A DNA stretch of 32,503 nt from Mycoplasmataceae bacterium (GCA_029009155.1 JAQXJX010000007.1:1-32503), one strand, 5' to 3'. Shown: positions 7,847 through 32,503, counted from the stretch's first letter. Notes: generated by a model from the sequence alone, not told the origin. A program made the numbers and translations.

Positions 7847-8557
7847 ATGCTTATTGCTTTAACTTCATTAGTTTTTGAACCTTGCTTCTTTGCAATGGTA
7901 AAACCAAATTCTTCTTTAAAGTGTGCATGTTTATCCAAATCCTTTTCTGATAAAACTTTGAATCTATTAAATATTAAAGATGGATGTATAATAACATGCT
8001 TTAATTGTTATTTTTGTTTTATCTTTTGTATCATACTCAGTGCAATTAGAATGTCTAATATTGAAGATGCACTTAAAAACAATACACAACCTCATTACAA
8101 AGATATATTTTATATTTATGACATAATTTGAGTTTCTATTTTCTCAGCATTAGCTTTTATTATGTTACTTGCTATTACTATTGTTATCTTGTATTCAAAT
8201 TCAAAACAAAATAAAAAGATTAATAATATTGAAATTGATTCATCATATTTAAATGAATTAATTCTTTATGTGAAAAATATAAAAATTTATTCTAATATAA
8301 ATAATCAATTTTTAAACTACCGTACTAATGGACTTTTAAACTACTATACTAATAAAATAAATAAAATTGTTTCAAAAATTCAGAGCTCAAAAGATAAAGT
8401 AAATTTAAATTTTTTAAAACTTATTAAAGCAATTATTTGCATAACTCATGATAGTAATTTCTATGCTGCAAATTATTATTGTGGTTCAACTGAAATTGAT
8501 CGAAAAGAATTAATAAATGTATTAAATGAAAAAATAGACAAGTGTATTTTAAATTAA
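7847..8557 (+). CDS. Multi-pass membrane protein, module A second gene (intact copy)
   Basis: A 236-residue membrane protein of no known family. Residues 1-60 are Cys-rich and hydrophobic (CFNCYFCFIFCIILSAI), a second hydrophobic pair follows (FSALAFIMLLAITIVILY near 100-117), and a polar C-terminal domain of ~110 residues ends in NKINKIVSKI, HDSNFYAANYY and a Glu/Lys-rich helix. The C-terminal half clearly aligns with the 12153-12808 relic: NYYTNKINKIVS against NYYNKKLNKIIS, then DSNFYAANYY against DNDFYEANYY. The central membrane region aligns too. No ribosome site precedes the ATG. The frame stays open back to an ATT at 7826, which could be an alternative start. No hydrophobic first gene is found upstream, unlike copies B and C. 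Confidence 0.7.
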
Positions 8558-8564
8558 ATACAAA

Positions 8565-8605
8565 AATAAAATACTATATCCTACTTTTATATATAGTATT
8601 TTATT
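8565..8605 (+). terminator. 15-bp perfect hairpin after module A
   Basis: Left arm AATAAAATACTATAT (8565-8579) is the exact reverse complement of 8591-8605, with an 11-base loop. It begins 7 bases after the stop of the 7847 gene. The stem is almost all A-T and ends in TTTTATT, so it is a likely but weak transcription terminator. Confidence 0.55.
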
Positions 8606-8697
8606 ACACGATGTTGATTCTTAAATCATAATCTGGAATTTAATCAAGAATTTATTAATACAGGAAAATAGTTTTTATAATTTCTAACTAACTCAAG

Positions 8698-8734
8698 ACA
8701 CACTATATTGCAATAACAGTATATGTGTTTTTTT
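8698..8734 (+). terminator. Probable rho-independent terminator upstream of ymdB
   Basis: ACACA plus TATA pair with TATA plus TGTGT (one bulged C, 12-base loop), followed by a seven-T run. It would stop transcripts entering from module A before ymdB. Confidence 0.55.
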
Positions 8735-8905
8735 ATTTAAACCTTAATAAAATTTATTTGCTTATGTGTAATTCTTTGTTATTATTCAGTAACATATGAT
8801 CTTTATAAGAGATGATTTGTTAAAAATCTTACAAGTTATTCTTTTATAACAAGGTATTGCATATTTAACTATAATGTAGTAAAAAAATTAAATATAATTT
8901 TTTAT

Positions 8906-9700
8906 ATGCGTATATTATTTATTGGTGATATTTTTGGTAAACAAGGAAGAAAAGCATTAGCTGACTTTTTACCAAAAATTATTAAAAAGAACAATATTGA
9001 TTTTGTTATTGCAAATGCAGAGAATTGTACTCATGGCCGTTCTTTGAATATTAAACATTACAATTACTTAAAATTATTAGGTGTAAATTTTTTTACATTC
9101 GGTAATCACACATGAGAGAATGATCAAATTTTTGACATATTAGAAAAACCTGATACAGTTAGACCATATAATATAAAACCACAATGTATGGAATCAAAAT
9201 ATGGAGTAGGGAGTAGAGTAGTAGTAGTAAAAAATAAAAGAATAAGAATTACTAATATGCTTGGAATGTCTGCAAATTGTAAAAATGTTCAATCTAATCC
9301 ATTCCTAGCTATGGATAAATTACTGACTGAAATAAAGGGAACACATGATATCCATATAGTTGACTTTCATGCTAATGCAACAAGTGAAAAGAATGCTTAT
9401 TTAATAACATATGCAGGACAACTTAGTGCTATTTTAGGTACACATACTCATGTACAAACAGCAGATGAAAAAATTTATAACAATACAGCATATATTACAG
9501 ACACAGGAATGAATGGACCAAGTAATGGAATAATTGGAGCAGCTCCAAAAACAATTATTCAAATGTTTAGAGAACAAGTATTGCATTTTAAATTAGATCC
9601 AGATACAAGTAAGTACCAATTTAATGCTGTAATGATTACTTTTAATAACAAAACAAATTTACCAACTTCTATTAAAAGAATCAATTTAGTTGAAGAATAA
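8906..9700 (+). CDS. ymdB: YmdB-family metallophosphoesterase (2',3'-cyclic nucleotide phosphodiesterase)
   Basis: A 264-residue cytoplasmic enzyme of the YmdB family (MG246 is the M. genitalium member). Metal-ligand motifs are in place: FIGDIFGKQGR at the N-terminus, NAENCTHGRS near residue 38, FGNHTW near 65 (the W is a TGA codon), DFHANATSEK near 153, GTHTHVQTAD near 175 and DTGMNGP near 196. In Bacillus, YmdB hydrolyses 2',3'-cyclic nucleotides and affects RNA turnover. No ribosome binding site is visible. A TATAAT at 8870-8875 puts the likely transcript start about 24 bases before the ATG, so the leader is very short. The tRNA-Trp gene follows 15 bases after the stop and may be co-transcribed. 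Confidence 0.93.
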
Positions 9701-9715
9701 AAAAACAAAACAATA

Positions 9716-9789
9716 AGGGGTTTAGTTCAACGGCAGAATAATAGTCTCCAAAACTACTGATGTGGGTTCGATTCCTACAACCCCTGCCA
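9716..9789 (+). tRNA. trnW: tRNA-Trp, anticodon CCA
   Basis: A complete 74-base cloverleaf with encoded CCA. The acceptor AGGGGTT pairs with AACCCCT (9779-9785), followed by G and CCA. The D arm is GTTC/GAAT, the anticodon loop is CTCCAAA giving anticodon CCA (reads UGG), and the T arm GTGGG/CCTAC encloses TTCGATT. The lowest pair of the anticodon stem is an A-C mismatch in my fold. This tRNA reads UGG only, so a separate UCA-anticodon tRNA-Trp must exist elsewhere to read the UGA codons seen here. Confidence 0.93.
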
Positions 9790-9798
9790 TACAAACTT

Positions 9799-9825
9799 AG
9801 ATAACTATTGTTATCTATTTTTTTT
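9799..9825 (+). terminator. Rho-independent terminator of ymdB/tRNA-Trp
   Basis: AGATAAC (9799-9805) pairs with GTTATCT (9810-9816) around a TATT loop and is followed by ATTTTTTTT. Position right after the tRNA and a clean U-run make this a strong call. Confidence 0.85.
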
Positions 9826-9833
9826 ATTTATGT

Positions 9834-9890
9834 AGACCAGAAAACCTATTTTACGCCACTTTAGGAGGTATAAAATGGGTTTTCTGGTCT
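9834..9890 (+). repeat. 20-bp inverted repeat with a perfect Shine-Dalgarno in its loop
   Basis: 9834-9853 and 9871-9890 are inverted copies differing at one base (a G-U pair in RNA). The 17-base loop holds AGGAGG (9863-9868). The ATG at 9875 lies in the right stem, six bases after that site. The structure directly follows the tRNA terminator and begins module B. It may be an RNA switch on translation of the 9876 frame or the boundary of an inserted segment. Confidence 0.75.
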
Positions 9891-10283
9891 AATGAATTAA
9901 AAAAACAAATAGGTGCATTAGTATCAGAAAAATGAGTATTAGTTGGTGTTGAATCTGGACTTTTAGGAATAACAGCAGGTTTTTGAGCAACATTTATGTG
10001 ATATTGAGCCGGACTTTGCACTGCAGCCTCTAGTGCTCCTGGTGCTATGTTAGGTTGCTTATGTTCATTAATTGATAGAATAAATGAATACATAGATAAT
10101 AAAATATCAGAAGACTATGTTAAAGGTCAAATTAATGGTTTAAAAACTGCAATTATAACTTTAATGGGTACACTTGAAGTTATGGTTTCTGCTTGCCCAG
10201 CTACTGGATGAGTTAAATGAACTGCTATTGGATCGTTCACAGCAATTAATATATCAGTACAAAAAGTTTTGGAAAACTTATAA
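9876..10283 (+). CDS. Hydrophobic Ala/Gly/Trp-rich protein, module B first gene (start out of frame)
   Basis: An open frame of ~135 codons using TGA as Trp. It encodes ELKKQIGALVSEKWVLVGVE, then SGLLGITAGFWATFMWYWAG, a small-residue stretch with several Cys, a polar helix (LIDRINEYIDNKISEDYVKG), and a second hydrophobic part ending SVQKVLENL. It aligns with the relic at 11690-12146 (ITAGFW against ITAAGFW, and the preceding KQIGALV against DQIDSLV). The only ATG behind the good ribosome site (9875) is in another frame and stops after five codons (MGFLV). Removing one G from the GGG at 9877-9879 would join it to this frame. So the gene is either off through a one-base change, truncated, or rescued by frameshifting or a rare start. 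Function unknown; a membrane-active role is a guess. Confidence 0.55.
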
Positions 10284-10292
10284 TTATTTATT

Positions 10293-10940
10293 ATGACTAG
10301 AATTTCTATAGTATTTATATTTATACTTTTATCTTATTTAATTATAGATTGTATACACAGCATGTTTTTTTATAAACAAAAAAACATAGGCTTATTGTCT
10401 AGAAAAACAAATAAATTTAATAACAAGACTTTTAATGATTACTTTCAAAATGGTGTGTATTATTCATCAATTAAAAATCAAATTAATGTAGTTCTTGGTG
10501 CAACTATAATGGTTGGTTATTTCATTGTTTATTTATTAACAAACATATATGGTTGAATGGGAGAAAATAAAGCTATTAACATTAGTTTTAATGTTTTATC
10601 TGTTTTATTACTAGTAGTATGAGCTTTATTTTATCGTGATGGATTTATTAAATATTCAAAATTTAAAAAACAATTAAGTAATACAAACTTTGATGTTGAT
10701 TCATATAAAAAGTTTTTATCTATCTTATTATCAATGAATATTAATAGCACTCGTTTAAACAACAAAATAAACAAAATTTTATCAAGTAAAGAAATATCAA
10801 AAGAATTTTATGCTGAAAGTTCTTTGTCTCTATTAAGTACAATCATTTTTTTAGAAAATACAAATAAACACAGAAGAAAAACTAAGATAGATTTTAATGA
10901 ACAATTTGTTAACACTATAAACAGCTTTTATATTTTTTAA
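10293..10940 (+). CDS. Multi-pass membrane protein, module B second gene
   Basis: A 215-residue protein with about four hydrophobic segments: residues 4-27 (IVFIFILLSYLIID), 66-85 (VVLGATIMVGYFIVYLL), 97-115 and possibly one more. A polar C-terminal domain from ~residue 125 contains STRLNNKINKILSSKEIS. The NNKINKI motif and following helix match the position of TNKINKIVS in the 7847 protein and KKLNKIIS in the 12593 relic, so I take it as a diverged third member of that family. It starts 9 bases after the module B first gene, the same spacing style as in module C. Two TGA codons are read as Trp. No known family is recognised; an immunity-like or partner role for the hydrophobic neighbour is only a hypothesis. 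Confidence 0.7.
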
Positions 10941-10971
10941 TTCTTGTTTAATCAATTACAAACTAAAAATG

Positions 10972-11007
10972 AGGTTAATTGCAAAATCAAGCAATGACCT
11001 TGTTTTT
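10972..11007 (+). terminator. Terminator of module B
   Basis: AGGTTAATTGC (10972-10982) pairs imperfectly with GCAATGACCT (10991-11000), followed by TGTTTTTATT. The stem sequence is close to that of the module C terminator at 12939, which supports duplication of the whole transcription unit. Confidence 0.7.
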
Positions 11008-11133
11008 ATTATTTATAGTCAATTAAAATTTAATAAACATGTTTTTGTGCTTATATGATTATTTTTCAAAATATCATTTATAAAATGTGGTGCAAAACGT
11101 TAGTCATACTTACATGTTATTTTATAAGTATTT

Positions 11134-11152
11134 TTCATTACATAGTAATGAA
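11134..11152. promoter_or_regulatory. Inverted repeat just upstream of the module C promoter
   Basis: TTCATTAC and GTAATGAA are perfect 8-base inverted copies with a 3-base spacer, ending 19 bases before the -35 box. The place and size fit a dimeric regulator's operator, but no regulator is identified. Confidence 0.35.
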
Positions 11153-11171
11153 TTAAATTTTTTGTTGATTT

Positions 11172-11200
11172 TTGACAATTATATTTTTTACTTATATAAT
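11172..11200 (+). promoter_or_regulatory. Perfect consensus sigma-70-type promoter of module C
   Basis: TTGACA (11172-11177), a 17-base spacer and TATAAT (11195-11200) match the consensus exactly. The predicted start near 11207 gives a ~75-base leader with a small hairpin before the ATG at 11281. Confidence 0.88.
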
Positions 11201-11280
11201 ATGTCCTTGAATGACTTTGAAAGAGAGTGATTCTAAACAGCAAACGTTGTTTAAAAATTTAAAAGGAAGAATATAATTTT

Positions 11281-12146
11281 ATGAAATTTAAAAAATATTA
11301 CCGTTAATTTTTGGTGGTGTTGTTGTAGTTGGAGTTACAACATCAGCACTATCATCTTATTGTGATTTACAAGACAATAAAATAAAAAAACAGATTGAAA
11401 AACATTAATAAAATCAAATAAAATTAAAACTAAAGTTGATTATGATAATGTAGAAAAACAATTAAGTAATATTCAAGTTAATAAAACTATAAACAATATT
11501 GAATTAACATCTGAACAAGCTCAAAAGGTATCAGAATTATAAAAACAATATTTTGATTTATTTAAAACAAATAATTATTCATTAGAACAAATTCGATCTT
11601 ATATGTGCGATAATTTCCAGAATATAGAAAACAATATGAGGAAAATAAACTTAATTTAAATGAAAAAATTAATATTTCATCTTTAAGTGTTGAAGTCAAA
11701 TCTGTTATTCTTACTAATGAAAATATTCAAGACCAAATTGATAGTCTTGTTTTTCAAAGAAATGTAATCATTGGAGTTACAACATTGTTTGCTATAACAG
11801 CTGCAGGTTTTTGAGCTGCTGCTTGATGGTTTGGAATTACAATTCCTGCTGCAATTGCTTGTACTACATCTTCTGTTTCTTGTGGTATATTACAAGATAA
11901 AATTGGACATACAGTTGATGAATTGCGTGAATATAAAGAAAAATGTGTTGATAAAGTTTGAAAAAAATTCATAAAGCTATGATTCTTGAAGTTTTAAGAT
12001 CGACATCAACATTAATTTCTTGTGAAGCTCTGATAATACAAGCAAGCTCTTGATGTTGTGTTGTAACAAAAGTTGTTGCTACTGCTGTATCAATAATATC
12101 ATTGGCATTTGAAGTAACTTCAATGATTATCAAAAATTACCTATAA
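11281..12146 (+). pseudogene. Decayed hydrophobic protein, module C first gene
   Basis: This relic can be read as one ~285-residue protein if four single bases are restored and one TAA is read as a sense codon. The pieces are: an N-terminal MKFKK plus hydrophobic segment LPLIFGGVVVVGVTTSAL (signal peptide or anchor); a polar coiled linker including NVEKQLSNIQVNKTINNIEL; then NIQDQIDSLVFQRNVIIG; FAITAAGFWAAAWWFGITIP; and a C-terminal part starting KAMILEVLRSTSTL. All four breaks look like one-base losses next to short A or T runs (near 11298, 11413, 11621 and 11968). The nonsense codon is the TAA at ~11540. The segment from 11690 on is homologous to the 9876 frame. A consensus promoter and AAAAGGAAG lie upstream, so the RNA is probably still made. 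Confidence 0.7.
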
Positions 12147-12152
12147 TTTTTT

Positions 12153-12808
12153 ATGATTACTACAATTACTTACATATTGATTTTAGTAGCAATAATAATA
12201 TTACTTGCTTTATTCTGAAGCCTCTTAATTAAAAAGAATTCATGTTTAAAAAATGCATTATTATCAAAGAACTTTTTGAAAAGAGTTTTAAATATATTGA
12301 TAATTAAAGATAAATATGTATATTCACTTTTATCTTTTATATTGATATTTTTATTTTGTTTAGCAGTTAGTTTACCAGGAATGTTAAAATTAGAAGAAAC
12401 AATACAAAACAAAGATAATTTAGAACTTAAGAATTATTGCTTTACTATTTTTTTCTTATCTCTTGCATTACTAATGTTATGTTCTTTTGTTATCTTATTT
12501 ATGATAATGAAAATTAAACAAAATAAAATTATCAAGAATTTAAAAATTAACTCTCAAAAACTAACAGAGTAACTTTTTGAAATTCTGATCGTTTGAATTA
12601 TTACAACAAAAAGTTAAATAAAATTATTTCAAATAATGATAAAGATGATATCAATTTAATTTATTTTAAATTGATTGAAAATATCCTTTTTATACTTTAT
12701 GATAATGACTTTTATGAAGCTAATTATTACAAAGGAACAGAAGCTATTGAAAGACATGAATTTATTAAAATATTAAGCAATAAATTTGAAACAGCTATTG
12801 AAAATTAA
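12153..12808 (+). pseudogene. Frameshifted membrane protein, module C second gene
   Basis: The first part (12153-12572, 139 codons) has an N-terminal membrane helix (YILILVAIIILLALFWSLLI), a Lys-rich loop, a second helix (SLLSFILIFLFCLAVSL) and a third (IFFLSLALLMLCSFVILFMI). It ends at TAA. The rest of the protein, NYYNKKLNKIISN through NDFYEANYYKGTEAIERHEF to 12808, is in another frame. Both parts align collinearly with the intact 7847 protein, so one base has been lost near 12570. The second part could start at TTG 12593 as a separate 71-residue product, but homology argues for a broken gene. It begins 6 bases after the module C first gene. Confidence 0.7.
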
Positions 12809-23608: not shown

Positions 23609-23816
23609 ATATTAATAAATTATAAACTATTTTATTTTTAAGAATCTATTTACTTAGTAGGTATTCATATTTCAAAAGCAATGAAATTATTATGGAATGA
23701 GTCTATATGAGCAAGAACATGTGACTTTGTTTTTTTTTTTTTTTTATAATAAAACTACAAAACATTGCGAAAGAGAAATATTACTTTGCTTTGTAGATTC
23801 ATATAGGAAGAAAAAT
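23609..23816. other. Divergent regulatory region between the helicase and the Ig-repeat protein
   Basis: 208 bases. The helicase side has TATAAT on the minus strand at 23619-23624 with no strong -35. The plus side holds the T16 tract and promoter at 23721-23750 and the ribosome site AGGAAG at 23805-23810. Confidence 0.6.
23721..23750 (+). promoter_or_regulatory. Promoter with a 16-T tract in its spacer (probable phase switch)
   Basis: TATAAT at 23745-23750 is directly preceded by a run of 16 T (23730-23745; the last T is the first base of the -10). A -35-like GTGACT (23721-23726, 4 of 6 to TTGACA) is 18 bases upstream, so the homopolymer fills nearly the whole spacer. Changes in T number would change spacer length, as known for the poly(A) tract of Mycoplasma hyorhinis vlp promoters. 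The -35 match is only moderate. Confidence 0.65.
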
Positions 23817-26800
23817 ATGAAAAATAAGAACAAGCATTTTGTATTTTTTACAAATTTATTGGCATTTTCTATTGTTGCATCTATTGCTGCATCTTTTTTA
23901 TTAAATTTACAAAATGGGTCAAAAAGTAATTTATCAAATTCTATTTCTAATGCTATCTTTGACTCTCAAGTCATTCCAGGTGTTTGGATGCATGTTGAAA
24001 CTTATTATGATTCATCAGCATCGCAAACAGTAGCTAAAATTACTGGGCTTGTAAATAAAGATGCAATCCCAGATAATACAATTTTTAGTTTCCCTGCAAC
24101 TGTTCAAAATTCATCAGGTAATTCTTATCCATTATTTGGTATAGGTGATGGTGCTTTTAATAATGTTCATTTATCTAAAACTAAATGTGGTGGTTTAACA
24201 TTTAAAGATGCTACCAATATGCGTTTTATTGACTCAAATGCTTTTAATACTTTTGGTAATTTTCAAGAATCTAACATTGTAACTGTCTTTCCAGCATCTA
24301 TTATTAAGTTTGGTACTAATTCATTTCAAAATTGCCCATTATTAACTATTGAATTTACTGAGAAAGATCCAACAAAAATCAATTTTGAAGCTGGATGAAA
24401 ACCCAATATTGAATCAGGTAGGGGATATAAAATTTCAGTCCCATATTCTGCCGATGAATCAATAGTTAATGCATATGTAATTCGTACAACTTTTTCAAAG
24501 GGTGAATTTTTAAATGGTTATTACCCTACTACTTTAACTATATCACCAAGAGTTACTGAAGTTACTGCTGGTGAGACAATTAGTGTATCTGCTGAATATA
24601 ATGATTTAGGTGTAACAGTTGACCCTGATTCTAAAATTTGATGAGATTCATCTGATAGTTCATCAGTTGTAATTGGAGCAAAAATTAATAAATCAAATGA
24701 AACTAATACAATTACTTTTAATCAACCTGGTACTTATACCATTACTGCAAATTATACAATTGACACTTATAATAAATTATCACCACAAGATTCTTTTACA
24801 GTTACTGTTAAAAGACCTGATGTTTCTGGGATTGATGTAACGGCTCCTTCTAATCAACAAATTAGAATAAGTGATTCTACTGATTTTTCTTTTTCTGCAG
24901 TTGTACAACCTTCTACATATTATCCAGATGCAAAGGTAACTTGATCATGAGCTACTGGAGAAACTCCAGAATTATCACTAGATTCTACAACAGGAGTAGT
25001 TTCATATAATCCTACTGCAAGTTCTAAATTAAGTGAAGGGACATATAGTTTTAGCTTAACTGCTACAAGTGATGATAATCCTACTGTTTCAAAAACCTCA
25101 GATGTAGTTCAACTAGTTGTAAAAAAAGACTATGTTACTAGCTTAACTGTTGATCCAATTTCAGATATTGATGTTATTCAAACAAAGCCTTCAACAACTC
25201 CTGTAACACCTACTGCAACAGTTGAACCATCAACTGCTGATCAAGGGGTTGTTTGAAGCTTAAAAGAAGGAGCTGGAACAACTACATTACCTGCTTGATT
25301 AACATGTGACCCGGTAACTGGTGATATCGCTTGAACAGCTACAACTAAAGATGATATAGGAACATATAACATCATTTTAGTTGCAACTAGTGTTGGAGAA
25401 ATGGATAGCACTGGTGCAAAAATGGTAACTAAAACTCCATTTGTAGTCAATGTAAAATATGATGATCCAACTTCAATTACTTTATCTGAAGGTCAAACTA
25501 CATTATCTGGATATGCAAGTAATGCAGGAGCAGCAACATCAGCTTTTAAAGCTACTATTACTCCAGCTGAAGCTAAACAAGAAGTAACTTGAGCTTTAGA
25601 TAATGCACCTAATTGAATAAGTATTAACGATGGTTTAATTTCATGAAGTAATTTAGCTACTAAAGGTATATACAATTTTAGAGTTAAAGCTACGGCTGTT
25701 GATGATCCAACTGTTATAGCTATAAGTGATCCTATTACTTTGACTATTGATTTTAACCATGTTCAATCTGTTGCTAAACCAACTGGACCAACATCATTAG
25801 ATGGTTTTCATAATGAAGCCAAAAGAGCAGCAACACCATTTACAACAATAGTAGATCCACTTGATGCAAATCAAGATGTAACTTGAAGTTTAATAGGTGC
25901 ACCAAGTTGAGTTAGTATTGATGCAGATGGCTACATTAGTTGAACAAATGATGCACAAGAAGGTACATACAATTTTACAGTTAAAGCTACTTCTGTAGGT
26001 TTAGATGTTGATGGAAATACAGTAGATTCTCCTGAGAGTGAAACTGTTACTTTAACTATTAAATATGCTCAACCTACAAGTATTACAATCACTGACGGAC
26101 AATATACTGGTGGAAATAAAGCAGGAATCGCTGGTTCATTAGCTGCTTTTAAAGCAAAAGTATTACCAGATAATGCAGAACAATCAGTTGAATGAAGTAT
26201 TGAGGATAAATCAGCAGATTTCCCAACATGAATTAGTATGGATAAAAATACAGGTATAGTTAGTTGAACTACTGCCTGTGTTAAAGGTGAATGAACATTT
26301 AAAGTTCAAGCTAAAACTACAAGTGCAGATTACGATCCAATTACTGCTAAATCTAATTTAATTACTTTATCATTTGATTATGCAGATGTAGTTAGTGTTG
26401 CTAAACCAACAGGACCAATTGGACCATTAGAAGGTATTAAAGGAGAAGCTAAAACAATTGATACCCCTTTTACAACAACAGTAAATCCTTCTAATGCTGA
26501 ACAAAAAGTAACATGAAAATTGGAAGCTGCAACAACTGGTGGTACTTGTCCAAGTTGAATTACAATTGATGAAAACGGTAAAATATCATGAACTGCAGAT
26601 GCTACACCTGGTACTTATGATATTGTTGCAGTTGCAACTAGTGTTGGTAAAGATGCTACTGGTCAACCAGTTTCTAGTAAAAGTGATCCTATAAGTATTG
26701 TAATCAAATATGCAGAACCTACAAGTATTACAATCACTGACGGACAATATACTGGTGGAAATAAAGCAGGAATCGCTGGTTCATTAGCTGCTTTTAAAGC

Positions 26801-29243
26801 AAAAGTATTACCAGATAATGCTAAACAATCAGTTGAATGAAGTCTTACTGATAAATCAGCTAATTTCCCAAGTTGAATTACAATCAATTCTTCTACAGGT
26901 GTTATTAGTTGAACTGACCAATGTAAAAAAGGTGAATATTCATGTAAGGTAAAAGCAAAAACAACTGATGCTGATTATCCTTCAATTGAAGCGACAACAG
27001 ATCAAACTGTTAATTTCACTTTCACATATGCAGATGTAACTGACATTGTCATTACAACACCAACTGATTTCCCTACAACAGATTGAGTTAAAGGTCATTC
27101 AATTACAACTTCTAGCTTTACTGCAGTAGTGCAACCTGATGGTTTTGCTGATCCTAATGTTACATGATCTATAAAAACATCAGAAGGTTCTCAAGAACTT
27201 AGTGGATTAACTATTGATCCTAATACTGGTATTCTTACATGAGATGGCACCGGAGACCCTGGAACTTATAAATTTAAGGTAGTTGCTACTAGTAATGGAA
27301 CACAATCAACAGGAGCTCACTATGTAAAAGAAACTAGTGAATTTGTAGTAAATGTTGTTTATGATAAACCAACAAGTATTACTATTAATGATGGTCCAAC
27401 TGTTGCAGGGCAAGGTGGTAAAGGTAGATGAGGTAAATCTAATAATCCTTATACTGCAGTAGTTGAAACTAAAGAACATGTTGCTCAAGATGTTACCTGA
27501 TCATTAGTTGATTTTAAAAAGGATGCTACAGCAACAACTGTTCCAACTTGATTACATATTTCTCAAGGAGGAGAATCAGTTCCTGAAATTTCTGATGATC
27601 CATTACCAGCTGGTTTAATTTATTGAGATAATAACTGTATTGATGGAACATATTCTGTTAAAGTAAAAGTTACTGCTGTTGAAAAATCTTCAACAGGAAC
27701 TGATGTTTCTGCAACAACTACAACTGATTACAATTTTGTAATTGATGAAGCAACTGTAGATGCTATTCAACTTGTAGATGGTACAGGATTATATACACAA
27801 ACTGGAACAGCTGGTATAGCTGGAACTCAATTAGATCCAGGATTTAAAGCTAAAACTACATATAGTGATGGAACAAGTGATGAAAATACAGCAACTTGAT
27901 CAATTACTGATTTTAAAAAAGATGGTAAAACTTTTCCAAAGCCGGCATGATTGAACATTACTCCAGATGCTTCTGGTGTAGCAAAAGTGAATTGAACTAA
28001 TGCATCAGAAAAAGGTGTATATACATTTAACATAGTAGCAACTGCTGCTAAAGATTTAAATAAAAATGCTAAAACAACTACTCCAGTTACTTTAACAATT
28101 GATTATGCTTTTGTTGGAGATGTACTATTAACTGATACTACAGTGCAAGAAAATAATGAAAGTATCATTGGTTTATCTGGTCAATTAAATGATAAATTCA
28201 AAGCAACTGTAAATCCTAAAGATGGTATAGGAACAATTGACCCAAGAGTTACTTGAAAAATAGAAATGGATGATGGCTCACAAGTACCAAGCTGATTACA
28301 TATTAACACAGAAGGTTTAGTTACATGAGATAATAATGCTCCTATTGGTGATTATGCATTTCATGTAGTAGCCACTAGTGTTGGCAAAATGGAAAGTGGA
28401 CAACAAGCAATATCCAACCCAAGTAAAACAATTAAATTAAAAGTTAAATATGCTGATGTTGCTAATATTACTATTTCAGGAGGTAGTGGTCCATCAATTA
28501 CTTCTGAAATAAATAAATCCGGTTCTACAGATCCATATATAGCAACTGTAAATCCAGTTGGTACAACATTACAAGATGTTACATGAAAGATTGAAACAAA
28601 AGATGGTTCGCCACTACCTGATTGAATTTCTATTGATCAAAATGGTAAAGTTTCATGAACTGAACATTCTAACACTGGAAAATATGAATTTGTAATTAAA
28701 GCATATGCTAAACAAGAGGGTTCTACTTCAATATTTGGTGAACAAGATTTAACACTAACATTTAATGATATTCCAGTTCCTCCTACTCCTCCAAAACCTG
28801 AACCTACAGACAATTATGATATTACAAGATGAATCCAAATTGGTTTAGGATTAGGAATTCCTACTTTAATATTTGGTTATACAGCATGTCATTACATTCG
28901 TATAAGTAGAAGAAATAACAAAAACTTAATTAAAGCAATTGAAACTAAATCTGCTATTGTTCATCGTCCTCAAAAAACAGAAGAAGAAAAAAGACAAGAA
29001 CAAAAACTAAAAGAAGAAAAAGCAGAACAAGAAAGATTAAAACAACAAGAAGCCGAGCAACAAAGAATAAAAGCGGAAGAAGAAAGAATAAAAGCTGAAC
29101 AAGACAGAATAAAAGCAGAAGAAGAAAAAATAAAACAACAAGAAAGATTAAAACAACAAGAAGCTGAAGAAAAAGAAATTAAAAATCTTTCAGATGAAGC
29201 AAAAGAACGAGATAAAAAATCTAATAAAACAAGTAAATTATAA
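23817..29243 (+). CDS. Giant Ig-like repeat surface protein with C-terminal membrane anchor
   Basis: An 1808-residue protein; the ATG at 23817 is chosen for the AGGAAG site six bases before it and a normal signal sequence. Layout: residues 1-30 signal peptide (FTNLLAFSIVASIAASFLLN); ~50-200 a BspA-like segment (FGIGDGAFNNVHLS, MRFIDSNAFNTFG); ~237-1650 about 13 Ig-like units of 100-120 residues, most with the pattern VTWSL...PSWISID.NG.ISWT....GTYxFxVKATS, resembling bacterial putative-Ig (He_PIG) domains; ~1671-1693 a membrane helix (WIQIGLGLGIPTLIFGYTAC); ~1715-1808 a cytoplasmic coiled coil of Glu, Lys and Gln (repeats of RIKAEEE and RLKQQEAE). Trp is almost always TGA. Units at 751 and 966 share identical DNA. 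A role in adhesion or host/partner contact is likely but inferred. The upstream T16 suggests on/off switching. Confidence 0.85.
26071..26176 (+). repeat. 106-bp repeat, copy 1 (Ig-repeat gene)
   Basis: Identical over 106 bases to 26716-26821; encodes the start of an Ig-like unit (PTSITITDGQYTGGNKAGIA and on). The 645-base offset equals 215 codons, two units. Confidence 0.9.
26716..26821 (+). repeat. 106-bp repeat, copy 2 (Ig-repeat gene)
   Basis: Second copy of the 26071-26176 repeat. The units before both copies also resemble one another (SVAKPTGP in each), so a two-unit block was duplicated. Confidence 0.9.
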
Positions 29244-29324: not shown

Positions 29325-32300
29325 ATGAAAATTAAGAAGGCATTTAAAATATTAACTCCTTTAATATTTTTATCATCATTACAAGCAGTTATTGTTTCTT
29401 CATGTAATAGTAATAATAAACCATCACCTGATCCTACTCCAAGTGATGTTAAAACAAAAAAAGAATTTAGAGCTTGTTGTATAAATGCAGATCAAGGGCA
29501 ATTTAACATAGAATATACAAACAATAAGCCTACTGATTGTAATTTAACAAAAGCATCAAAAGATTTTAAAGCTATTGATTTTAACTTTAATAATGGTATT
29601 ATTTCTTCCAATGATGGATTTGAATACATAATTACATCTATAGGTGATCATGCATTTGAAAATAATACTAATTTAGTTGGAGATATTTATATTCCTAACA
29701 CTATTAAATCTATAGGTAAATATTCTTTTACTCACTCTGGTCTAAATGGCATAATTCACATTCCTGATAGTATTGACAGTATTGGAGCATATGCTTTTGC
29801 TGACACTAAAATTCAAATTTTGGATTTAACAGAACACACATCAAAAATTATTAATTATGCCAATAACATAGTTAATGAATCAGCAATTATATATGTTCCT
29901 AAAGATTTATTGCAGGCATATAAAAATGCTGAAGGTTGGAATACGATAGTAGATAGAATTTATGCAAAATCTGAACCAATCCCACCTCAACCACAATTTA
30001 TAACTGAGACATTAGATTCTAAATACATAGGTGGATCTAAAGGAACATTTGATATCGGGTATTATCAAGGTCATTCTGATTATTGTCAAATATTAAGTGT
30101 AAGTGATGATTTCACAGCTAAAAATTTTAATTTTAATGATGGCATCATTAAAAAAACAGAAACTGAAAAGATAACTATTACTAATATTAAAGAAAGTTGC
30201 TTTAAAAACTGCTTAGGATTAACAAACACTTTAACTATACCTTCAACAATTAGTCATATCAATCCTTATACCTTTGCTGGTTGTTCAAAGCTAAATAAAG
30301 TAGTAATTAATGAAGGCATAGATTCAATTGATGATTACGCTTTTGCTGATTGTGAATCTTTAGATTTAGAAACAATAATATTACCTAATTCACTTGAAAA
30401 TATTGGTAAATGTGCTTTTAAAGATTGCCATAAAAAATCAAATATAACAATAGGATTACCTAAAAAAGTTAAACATATTGGTAATAATGCTTTTGAAAAT
30501 GTAAATATGAAGGCACTAGATTTAACAACAATCGATCATGTAATTGATATTGATTCTAATCCATTATCTGATTTAGGATTTATGGCAAATAACAATGTTA
30601 GATTAATATCAATTAATAGTGATGCAATACATCAACAATATTTACAAGATGATAATTGAAAAACTTGTGAAGAGTTATTTAGAGTTGTTCCAAAAGGAGA
30701 AAAAACTGAAGTAATACCAGCATCTTTAATAGGCGCAACATCAGGAGATATAACAATTCAATATAAAAATCCTAATGAATGCTCTATTGTAAAAATATCA
30801 TCAGATTTTTTATCATCTAAAAATCTTGATTTTGCTAATGGAAACATTTCTTACAAAGGTATCAAACTAACTATTACTAATATTAAAGAAGGTTGTTTTA
30901 AAAACTGTTTAGGATTAACAAACACTTTAACTATACCTTCAACAATTAGTCATATCAATCCTTATACATTTGCAGGTTGTTTGAAACTAAATAAAGTAGT
31001 AATTAATGAAGGTATAGATTCAATTGATGATTATGCTTTTGCTGATTGTGAATCTTTAGATTTAGAAACAATAATATTACCTAATTCACTTGAAAACATT
31101 GGTAAATGTGCTTTTAAAGATTGCAATAAAATTTGTAAAAATTCAACAATTAAATTACAAAACAGCATTAAGCATATTGCAAATGGTGCTTTTAGTAATT
31201 CAAATATTGAAACATTAAATTTAGAGGATATAGATCATGTAATTGAAATTGATTCTAATCCTTTATCTGAAGTAGGGTTTTTATCAAAAAATCCTATTAA
31301 GAGAATTACTTTTGTAGATGAAACAATCAATCATATTTTTTCTTTAAATAAATATTGATTATCTTGTCAAGAAATATTCTCTAATATTGAAACTGTTACT
31401 AAAACTTTTCTTGCATCAACAATATCAGGAGAAACTGGTACTTTTACTCTTTCTTTCCCTGTTAACCATACATTAAAATCTACTCTATTATCTGTGCAAA
31501 AAGACTTTGTAGTAGATTCTAATTTTTGAAATATGAATAATGGTGTATTTAAATATAATGATCAAAATTATCAAATTTGCAGTATTGCAGCTAATGCTTT
31601 TGATGCAGGTTCAACTCATTGATATTTCAAAAAATGTAATTTAGTTATTCCTTCTACTGTTAAAACAATAGGTGATCAAGCCTTTTATGGAAATTCTCGT
31701 AATACTTCTTTATCTGATAAAGAAATCATTGGCATTAACTTCAATGAAGGTATTGAAGATATTGGAATAGAAGCTTTTTATAAATGTAATGATCTAATTG
31801 ATACAACAATTAAATTACCAAACAGTATTAAACACATTAGTGATAATGCATTTGGTAAAACTAATATGGAAATATTAGATTTAACAACATTAGACCATGT
31901 AATTGATGTTGATAGTGATTTAGATTCTAAAAATAGCTTTTTATATGACACAAAAATAAATAAGATTATTTTTAAAGATGACAAAATTTTAAATTTATAT
32001 GCAAATGATAGTCATTGATGCAAATATAAAAATTTATTTGTAAAAGAAAGTGATAAGGTTACTAAAAATATTCCAGGTAGTTATTTTATATATGGAACTA
32101 CAACAATTGAAAATCATGGATATGTAACAATTGAATTTAACCACAATAACCCTTTAGATTGCAAGATAATTTCAGTAAAAGATTTTTGTGTTGGTAGCGG
32201 ATTAACTCAAGAAACTTTTGATTTTAATAAGGGAAAATTTAATTATGAAGGTATTAATTATCAAATTACATCCATTGGGAAAGATGCATTAAGACCAAGT

Positions 32301-32503
32301 AGTATCAGTTCATTTTTTTCAGATATTATTTTGCAGATTCCTTCTACTGTTAAAACAATAGAAGATGGTGCTTTTTATGGTAATTCTCGTAACTGGGGTA
32401 TTTCTGATAAAGAAATTATTGGTATTCAATTTAATGAAGGCTTAGAAGATATTGGAAAAGAAGCTTTTTATAAATGTAATGATCTAATTGATACAACAAT
32501 TAA
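29325..32503 (+). CDS. BspA-like leucine-rich-repeat lipoprotein, C-terminus beyond the window
   Basis: The first 1059 codons of a larger gene cut by the right edge. AAGAAAGGA lies 5 bases before the ATG. The N-terminus is a lipoprotein signal (KKAFKILTPLIFLSSLQAV followed by lipobox VSSC, Cys at residue 27) with a Pro/Ser linker after it. The rest consists of ~230-residue modules. Each has a beta domain (pattern GxFxIxYxNxxxCxIxxVSxDF...FNFNxGxI) and then LRR_5-type repeats such as IPSTISHINPYTFAGCSKLN and LPNSLENIGKCAFKDC. Module 1 (to ~residue 220) ends in YVPKDLLQAYKNAEGWNTIV, a typical BspA segment. Modules 2 and 3 (from ~225 and ~455) are near-identical over ~230 bases; modules 4 and 5 share another long block. 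Such proteins in other organisms bind matrix proteins or other microbes. Expected on the outer membrane face. Confidence 0.88.
30196..30430 (+). repeat. Lipoprotein internal repeat, copy 1
   Basis: About 235 bases nearly identical to the segment 696 bases downstream (232 codons away); covers the LRR part from CFKNCLGLTNTLTIPS to GKCAFKDC. Confidence 0.85.
30892..31126 (+). repeat. Lipoprotein internal repeat, copy 2
   Basis: Second copy of the 30196-30430 segment with only a few third-position and single-residue differences (S to L in AGCSK/AGCLK). Confidence 0.85.
31647..31813 (+). repeat. Lipoprotein internal repeat, second family, copy 1
   Basis: Encodes IPSTVKTIGDQAFYGNSRN through EAFYKCNDLIDTTI. 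Matches 32337-32503 at a 690-base offset (230 codons), with some divergence in the middle. Confidence 0.8.
32337..32503 (+). repeat. Lipoprotein internal repeat, second family, copy 2 (cut by window end)
   Basis: Second copy of the 31647-31813 segment; the last ~40 bases are identical up to the window edge, so the repeat probably continues. Confidence 0.8.

What the first reader, a model, noticed from the sequence alone, without database searches (positions are those of the whole stretch)
7847..12808. Three-copy family of a two-gene membrane module around ymdB and tRNA-Trp
Copies at 7847-8557, 9876-10940 and 11281-12808 share a multi-pass membrane protein with an NKINKI-type C-terminal domain; two of them are preceded by a very hydrophobic Ala/Gly/Trp-rich protein with the same ITA(A)GFW core. 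I recognise no known family. The pairing of a membrane-active-looking protein with a multi-pass partner recalls toxin/immunity or bacteriocin-type pairs, but this is a hypothesis. Location in an otherwise conserved pcrA-ymdB neighbourhood suggests insertion and tandem spread.
Basis: partly seen in the sequence, partly recalled or inferred. Interest (0 to 1): 0.75.

Follow-up and report, generated by a model that had tools for sequence, protein, structure and literature searches.

The report
Toxin-immunity-like gene pairs in mollicutes
In this wall-less bacterium the window holds decayed and intact copies of a gene pair found, mostly unnamed, across the whole mycoplasma/spiroplasma order: a secreted protein with a greasy hairpin next to a variable membrane protein, which looks like a pore-forming weapon and the immunity protein that protects its owner.

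Summary
The window holds three loci of a two-gene module, A (secreted, Ala/Gly/Trp-rich hydrophobic hairpin) then B (multi-pass membrane protein). Both A genes in the window are broken. B at 7847 and 10293 are intact, and B at 12153 is frameshifted. The three B genes form two remote subfamilies, not one close family.

The same genome holds three intact A genes (276-308 aa, signal peptide, 'NYSLEEIQ.YMCENFP.YKEEY' domain, hairpin, second hydrophobic stretch) and several orphan B genes. A profile of A hits 50 of 320 genomes in the order, and A occurs on a Spiroplasma taiwanense plasmid. A is followed by a multi-TM gene in 42/63 cases against 22/126 for controls (p=3e-11). A has a conserved tip, AAG[YF]WAxAWWxFGxxxPWAxAAT; B is hypervariable. 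No Pfam, NCBIfam, PHROG, PADLOC or PDB-sequence family matches.

The best reading is a bacteriocin-like system: A inserts its hairpin into competitor membranes and B is the membrane immunity protein. In this genome A has decayed more often than B, and B genes occur without A. Toxicity and protection are inferred, not shown. AF2 confidence is low, and A-B co-divergence was not significant. The copy between pcrA and ymdB is an insertion.

The parts
7847..8557 (+). Orphan B gene (subfamily B-II), 236 aa, intact, no A gene in front; inserted between pcrA and ymdB
   Evidence: ORF by code 4; 42% identical to a B on contig C19; pcrA-ymdB adjacent in relatives
9819..9905 (.). Dispersed palindromic element (35-nt arms, 86% complementary) at the 5' break of the A remnant
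   Evidence: folds with z -10; further copies at G000 C1:252-300 (98%) and C21:2972-3013
9828..10283 (+). Remnant of an A gene (hairpin 'ITAGFW' and C-terminal part only); N-terminal half lost, ATG at 9874 out of frame
   Evidence: weak support
10293..10940 (+). B gene (subfamily B-I), 215 aa, intact
   Evidence: paralogues on C21 (two) and C18
11172..11200 (+). Promoter-like site TTGACA-17-TATAAT (12/12 consensus) before the A pseudogene; a related leader lies before other A genes of the genome
11281..12146 (+). A pseudogene: signal peptide, 'VDY..VEK' region, 'NYSLEQIRSYMCDNF' domain, hairpin 'AITAAGFWAAAWWFGITIPAAIACT', C-terminal hydrophobic part, in several frames
12153..12808 (+). B gene (subfamily B-II), frameshifted near 12566; homologue of 7847
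8906..9789 (+). Context: ymdB and tRNA-Trp, conserved neighbours that mark the ancestral order pcrA-ymdB-tRNA-Trp

Best explanation
The loci are copies, mostly decayed, of a toxin-immunity cassette. Gene A encodes a protein exported through a Sec signal peptide. It carries a small helical domain, then two long helices joined by a very hydrophobic Ala/Trp/Gly tip (AAGFWAxAWWxFGxxxPWAxAAT), then a second hydrophobic stretch. I infer that A inserts this hairpin into the plasma membrane of neighbouring mollicutes, which have no wall in the way, and permeabilises it. Gene B, probably translated from the same operon, is a variable 3-4-TM protein that stays in the producer's membrane and blocks A. 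Loss of A with retention of B leaves orphan immunity genes such as 7847. Shown: the two families, their order-wide adjacency, the signal peptide (sequence-based), decay of A in this genome, orphan B, and a plasmid copy. Inferred: secretion, membrane insertion, killing, and immunity.
For: In the same genome there are three intact A genes, two of them with a membrane gene directly downstream. Profile A11 hits 50/320 genomes of the order. A is followed within 300 bp by a same-strand ORF with >=2 TM in 42/63 cases against 22/126 controls, p=3e-11. Spiroplasma taiwanense plasmid: A and B with a 1-bp gap. The hairpin tip is conserved (G 61/70, F 55/70, P 53/70), while B falls into 29 BLASTP clusters. 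dN/dS is 0.2-0.5 for A and 0.22-0.25 for B between genomes where dS>0.1, so both are maintained. AF2: long helical hairpin 215-261/270-308 whose turn is the hydrophobic motif. In this genome, by my count: A 3 intact against 5 broken or trace; B 8 intact against 2 broken and 1 cut by a contig end. B without A at 7847, on C19, and on C21b and C18 where only A leader or signal-peptide traces remain.
Against: The intact A on C27 has no B beside it, and 21/63 A genes order-wide lack an adjacent multi-TM gene by this test. A-B co-divergence was not significant (Mantel rho 0.14, permutation maximum 0.17). The AF2 model is poor overall (mean pLDDT 52), and the best structural match, AhlB prepore Z 6.9, is not above the level common for helical models. 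In family f7 only 10/27 A proteins have an obvious signal peptide. No activity data exist.
Confidence: 0.55

Rival explanations
1. A is a surface-exposed membrane protein (adhesin, nutrient or structural factor) and B is its dedicated membrane partner for export, anchoring or assembly; neither is a toxin.
For: Fixed order A then B and tight spacing fit an assembly pair; many mollicute surface proteins are multi-copy (general knowledge).
Against: A partner needed for export should be conserved, but B is hypervariable and often not alignable. Orphan B genes in this genome and one A without B fit immunity better. A is short and ends in hydrophobic segments instead of an exposed adhesin domain.
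Confidence: 0.2
2. A is a pore-forming toxin aimed at the host (animal, insect or protist cell) and B protects the producer's own membrane.
For: Mollicutes are host-associated; long-hairpin alpha-toxins act on eukaryotic membranes, and AhlB tops the weak structural list.
Against: Hypervariable partners, multiple different pairs per genome and orphan partners are the pattern of competition between bacteria. Patchy distribution inside one genus: at E<=0.001 only 4 of 36 same-genus genomes hit, and only the window's genome with a single-sequence query.
Confidence: 0.12
3. Selfish addiction or abortive-infection cassette: A poisons the producing cell's own membrane when B is lost or when a phage attacks.
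For: One copy is on a small plasmid; toxin plus antidote side by side.
Against: A has a signal peptide in 18/19 of the Spiroplasma-type family f8, which is unusual for an intracellular toxin; no PADLOC match and no match in phage genomes.
Confidence: 0.1

Closest known systems
Pore-forming colicins with 3-4-TM immunity proteins (general knowledge)
   Same: Secreted toxin whose hydrophobic helical hairpin enters the membrane; immunity is an integral membrane protein encoded next door; plasmid-borne examples; orphan immunity genes
   Different: No sequence match to a colicin pore-forming family for A; A has a Sec-type signal peptide, and there is no outer membrane or receptor/translocation domain; two hydrophobic segments
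Cdz contact-dependent glycine-zipper bacteriocins of Caulobacter (PMC5380434)
   Same: Hydrophobic small-residue-rich toxins with a small membrane immunity protein
   Different: Cdz proteins are under 90 aa, two-component and exported by a type I system; A is 276-456 aa with a signal peptide
ClyA/AHL-type alpha-pore-forming toxins
   Same: Predicted long antiparallel helices with a hydrophobic tip; AhlB prepore is the top but weak structural row (Z 6.9, rmsd 3.3, 147 residues)
   Different: No significant sequence or fold score; to my knowledge those systems have no adjacent membrane immunity gene
Putative class IIb bacteriocin ASJ89026.1 of Ca. Mycoplasma girerdii (PMC10557491)
   Same: A predicted bacteriocin gene in a mollicute, proposed to act in competition with Mycoplasma hominis
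   Different: Only one annotated gene; its sequence could not be compared here

Membership tests
Pore-forming colicins | Match to a colicin pore-forming domain profile | tested here: not met
   No Pfam colicin pore-forming or colicin-immunity family among the matches up to E 1 or up to 0.1
Pore-forming colicins | Adjacent integral-membrane immunity gene | tested here: inconclusive
   An adjacent multi-TM gene is present in 42/63 A genes against 22/126 controls; that it confers immunity was not tested
Pore-forming colicins | Channel formation in target membrane | not testable with these tools
   Needs liposome or planar-bilayer assay
ClyA/AHL-type alpha-PFT | Long helical bundle with hydrophobic head or hairpin | tested here: inconclusive
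   AF2 hairpin 215-308 with pLDDT mostly 67-82; Foldseek no E<=0.001; VIA Z 6.9
Class II bacteriocins / lactococcin 972 | Family profile above curated cut-off | tested here: not met
   One A protein gives 15.6 bits to TIGR01653 against a cut-off of 32.1; no other bacteriocin model listed
Known anti-phage defence system | PADLOC profile match | tested here: not met
   Only chance-level hits at E>=0.0079

The most novel reading that the evidence does not exclude
An unnamed, order-wide family of Sec-secreted hairpin toxins and hypervariable membrane immunity proteins is a general weapon system of wall-less bacteria, with lineage-specific arsenals of several pairs plus orphan immunity genes.
Probability: 0.45. 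Interest if true: 0.78.

Novelty: new variant of a known kind. Interest (0 to 1): 0.62.

Why it matters
I found almost no described mechanism for mollicutes to fight one another. If A and B work as inferred, a conserved weapon family has been sitting unannotated in Spiroplasma and many other mycoplasmas. It would explain an inflated class of 'hypothetical' membrane proteins in tiny genomes, and it would give a motif and gene order by which such systems can be found and tested.

Tried and rejected
1) Known-family matches: Pfam, NCBIfam, PHROGs, PADLOC and PDB sequences gave only chance-level hits.

2) A mobile element carrying the module: a leader of about 450 bp is shared by three A/B loci of the genome, and an IS-type transposase fragment lies before the C19 B pair. 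But no terminal repeats framing the module were found, so transposition is not shown.

3) Phase variation as the reason for the A frameshifts at 11281: rejected, because there are several frame changes plus an internal stop.

4) A-B co-evolution by Mantel test: not significant.

5) Genome-contig scan with the window genome's A: no relatives. A second scan with the other genus's A gave six loci, all uncultured Mycoplasma.

6) AF2 of B at 10293: pLDDT 58, only 'all helical' can be said.

7) Foldseek on the A model: nothing at E<=0.001. Family absence in the VIA list is not taken as evidence.

Full report
What is there. The window is contig C7 of an 886-kb, 33-contig genome of a mollicute that reads TGA as Trp. 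In 7.8-12.8 kb lie three loci. The first, 7847-8557, is an intact 236-aa membrane gene, here called B. The second is a first gene, here called A, whose frame runs through 9828-10283, followed by an intact B at 10293-10940. The third is an A pseudogene at 11281-12146 followed by a frameshifted B at 12153-12808. ymdB and tRNA-Trp lie between the first and second loci.

Are the copies related? 7847 and 12153 are clear homologues. 10293 finds other paralogues (C21 twice, C18) but not those two. Profile-profile comparison joins the two subfamilies over 191 columns with score 37.5; 400 column shuffles reach 24.3 at most and the reversed alignment 24.0. The A pseudogene at 11281 matches the A profile fragment by fragment (E 8e-26, 8e-13, 4e-8). 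The 9828 remnant is a probable but weak member.

What intact A looks like. Searching the genome with the A of contig C21 gave intact genes on C27 (288 aa), C10 (308 aa) and C10 (276 aa, GTG start). They share a signal peptide, a 'VDYSLVEK' region, a helical 'LQ..YL.LFK.NNYSLEEIQ.YMCENFP.YKEEY' region, an Ala-rich hairpin and a second hydrophobic end. One is followed by a B cut off by the contig end, one by a complete B, and one (C27) by none. The C21 A has an N-terminal frame break and is followed by two different B genes. C18 keeps only the A signal peptide before a broken B. A second C21 locus keeps B plus an A leader. C19 has two B genes and no A. My count in this genome is A 3 intact and 5 broken or trace; B 8 intact, 2 broken and 1 cut by a contig end.

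How far it reaches. Within the family, the A profile finds relatives in another genus with the same A-then-B order, some in tandem. Their contigs are named uncultured Mycoplasma sp.. Profile-profile comparison joins the two A types (96.7%, E 4e-10, score 77 against at most 52 in shuffles). A pooled profile hits 50 of 320 genomes of the order, in four families. A protein from the f8 family finds one plasmid among 72,556: Spiroplasma taiwanense CT-1 NC_021832, where STAIW_RS05460 (A, 304 aa) and RS05465 (B, 234 aa) lie 1 bp apart, both annotated 'hypothetical protein'. A Mesomycoplasma hyorhinis record has a short unannotated A-like fragment. No phage record matches.

Is the pairing real? After fetching 60 further loci, 42 of 63 A genes are followed within 300 bp on the same strand by an ORF with at least two hydrophobic segments, against 22 of 126 control genes (Fisher p=3e-11). 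Gaps are mostly -90 to +50 bp. TM counts are from a simple hydropathy scan. A aligns across the order around one motif, AAG[YF]WAxAWWxFGxxxPWAxAAT (G 61/70, F 55/70, P 53/70). B falls into 29 BLASTP clusters among the sequences compared. The B subfamilies of the window are nearly private to this genome. Between genomes, dN/dS is 0.2-0.5 for A and 0.22-0.25 for B where dS exceeds 0.1; one pair of A copies within a single contig gives 0.62. In the A tree the family label changes 11 times (minimum 3, shuffled mean 34), and the genome's four A genes form one clade, so the expansion here is lineage-specific.

Structure. AF2 for a 456-aa A (8 sequences) has mean pLDDT 52. A small helical domain (about 112-160) and two long helices, 215-261 and 270-308, are the better parts, and the hydrophobic motif is the turn between them. 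Foldseek finds nothing significant. The VIA list is led by the AhlB prepore of an alpha-pore-forming toxin (Z 6.9), which is within the range common for helical models. B at 10293 is only 'all helical' (pLDDT 58).

Insertion history. In G027, G002, G014 and G021 of the same genus pcrA and ymdB are 18-80 bp apart, and tRNA-Trp follows ymdB closely in many relatives. The window has 1311 bp and a B gene between pcrA and ymdB. The A remnant at 9828 begins inside a palindrome that also occurs on C1 and C21. A perfect sigma-70-type promoter (12/12) precedes the A pseudogene.

Interpretation. A secreted hairpin protein, a hypervariable membrane protein directly behind it, several different pairs per genome, decay of A with orphan B, and a plasmid copy together fit a bacteriocin and its immunity protein. 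The closest working analogies are the pore-forming colicin with a membrane immunity protein (general knowledge) and Cdz (PMC5380434). It is not a member of a colicin family by profile. The literature search found one mollicute precedent, a putative class IIb bacteriocin in Ca. M. girerdii (PMC10557491), whose sequence I could not compare. Open weaknesses: one intact A lacks B, a third of A genes order-wide lack a detectable B, co-divergence is not significant, and function is untested.

Noticed in passing
window 9819-9905; G000 C1:252-300, C21:2972-3013: Strong dispersed palindrome (fold z -10) that encloses a Shine-Dalgarno sequence and an ATG; possibly a small non-autonomous repeat element.
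   Followed up: partly
L033 (G012) and L036 (G005): Secreted proteins of about 1035 aa in the same genus that carry the A-type hairpin in mid-protein and a hydrophobic C-terminus: possible giant variants of A.
   Followed up: partly
L011:4720-5380, L023:2725-3222, L012:4928-5422 (minus strand): Leader of about 450 bp shared by three A/B loci of the genome, at 78% identity between L012 and L023 against about 62% in A coding DNA; could be regulatory or a mobile remnant.
   Followed up: partly
window 23697-29243: 1848-aa secreted surface protein with many Ig-like repeats and a C-terminal TM anchor.
   Followed up: no
window 30105-32503: Direct DNA repeats of about 700 bp (65% identity), with matches to leucine-rich BspA-like genes on other contigs.
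   Followed up: no
L163:5970-8183 (S. taiwanense plasmid): Runs of paralogous small lipoproteins downstream of the A/B pair on the 11-kb plasmid.
   Followed up: no
L103 (G230), L118 (G119), L124 (G127): Tandem A/B pairs in another family of the order, with diverged A N-termini that often lack an obvious signal peptide.
   Followed up: partly
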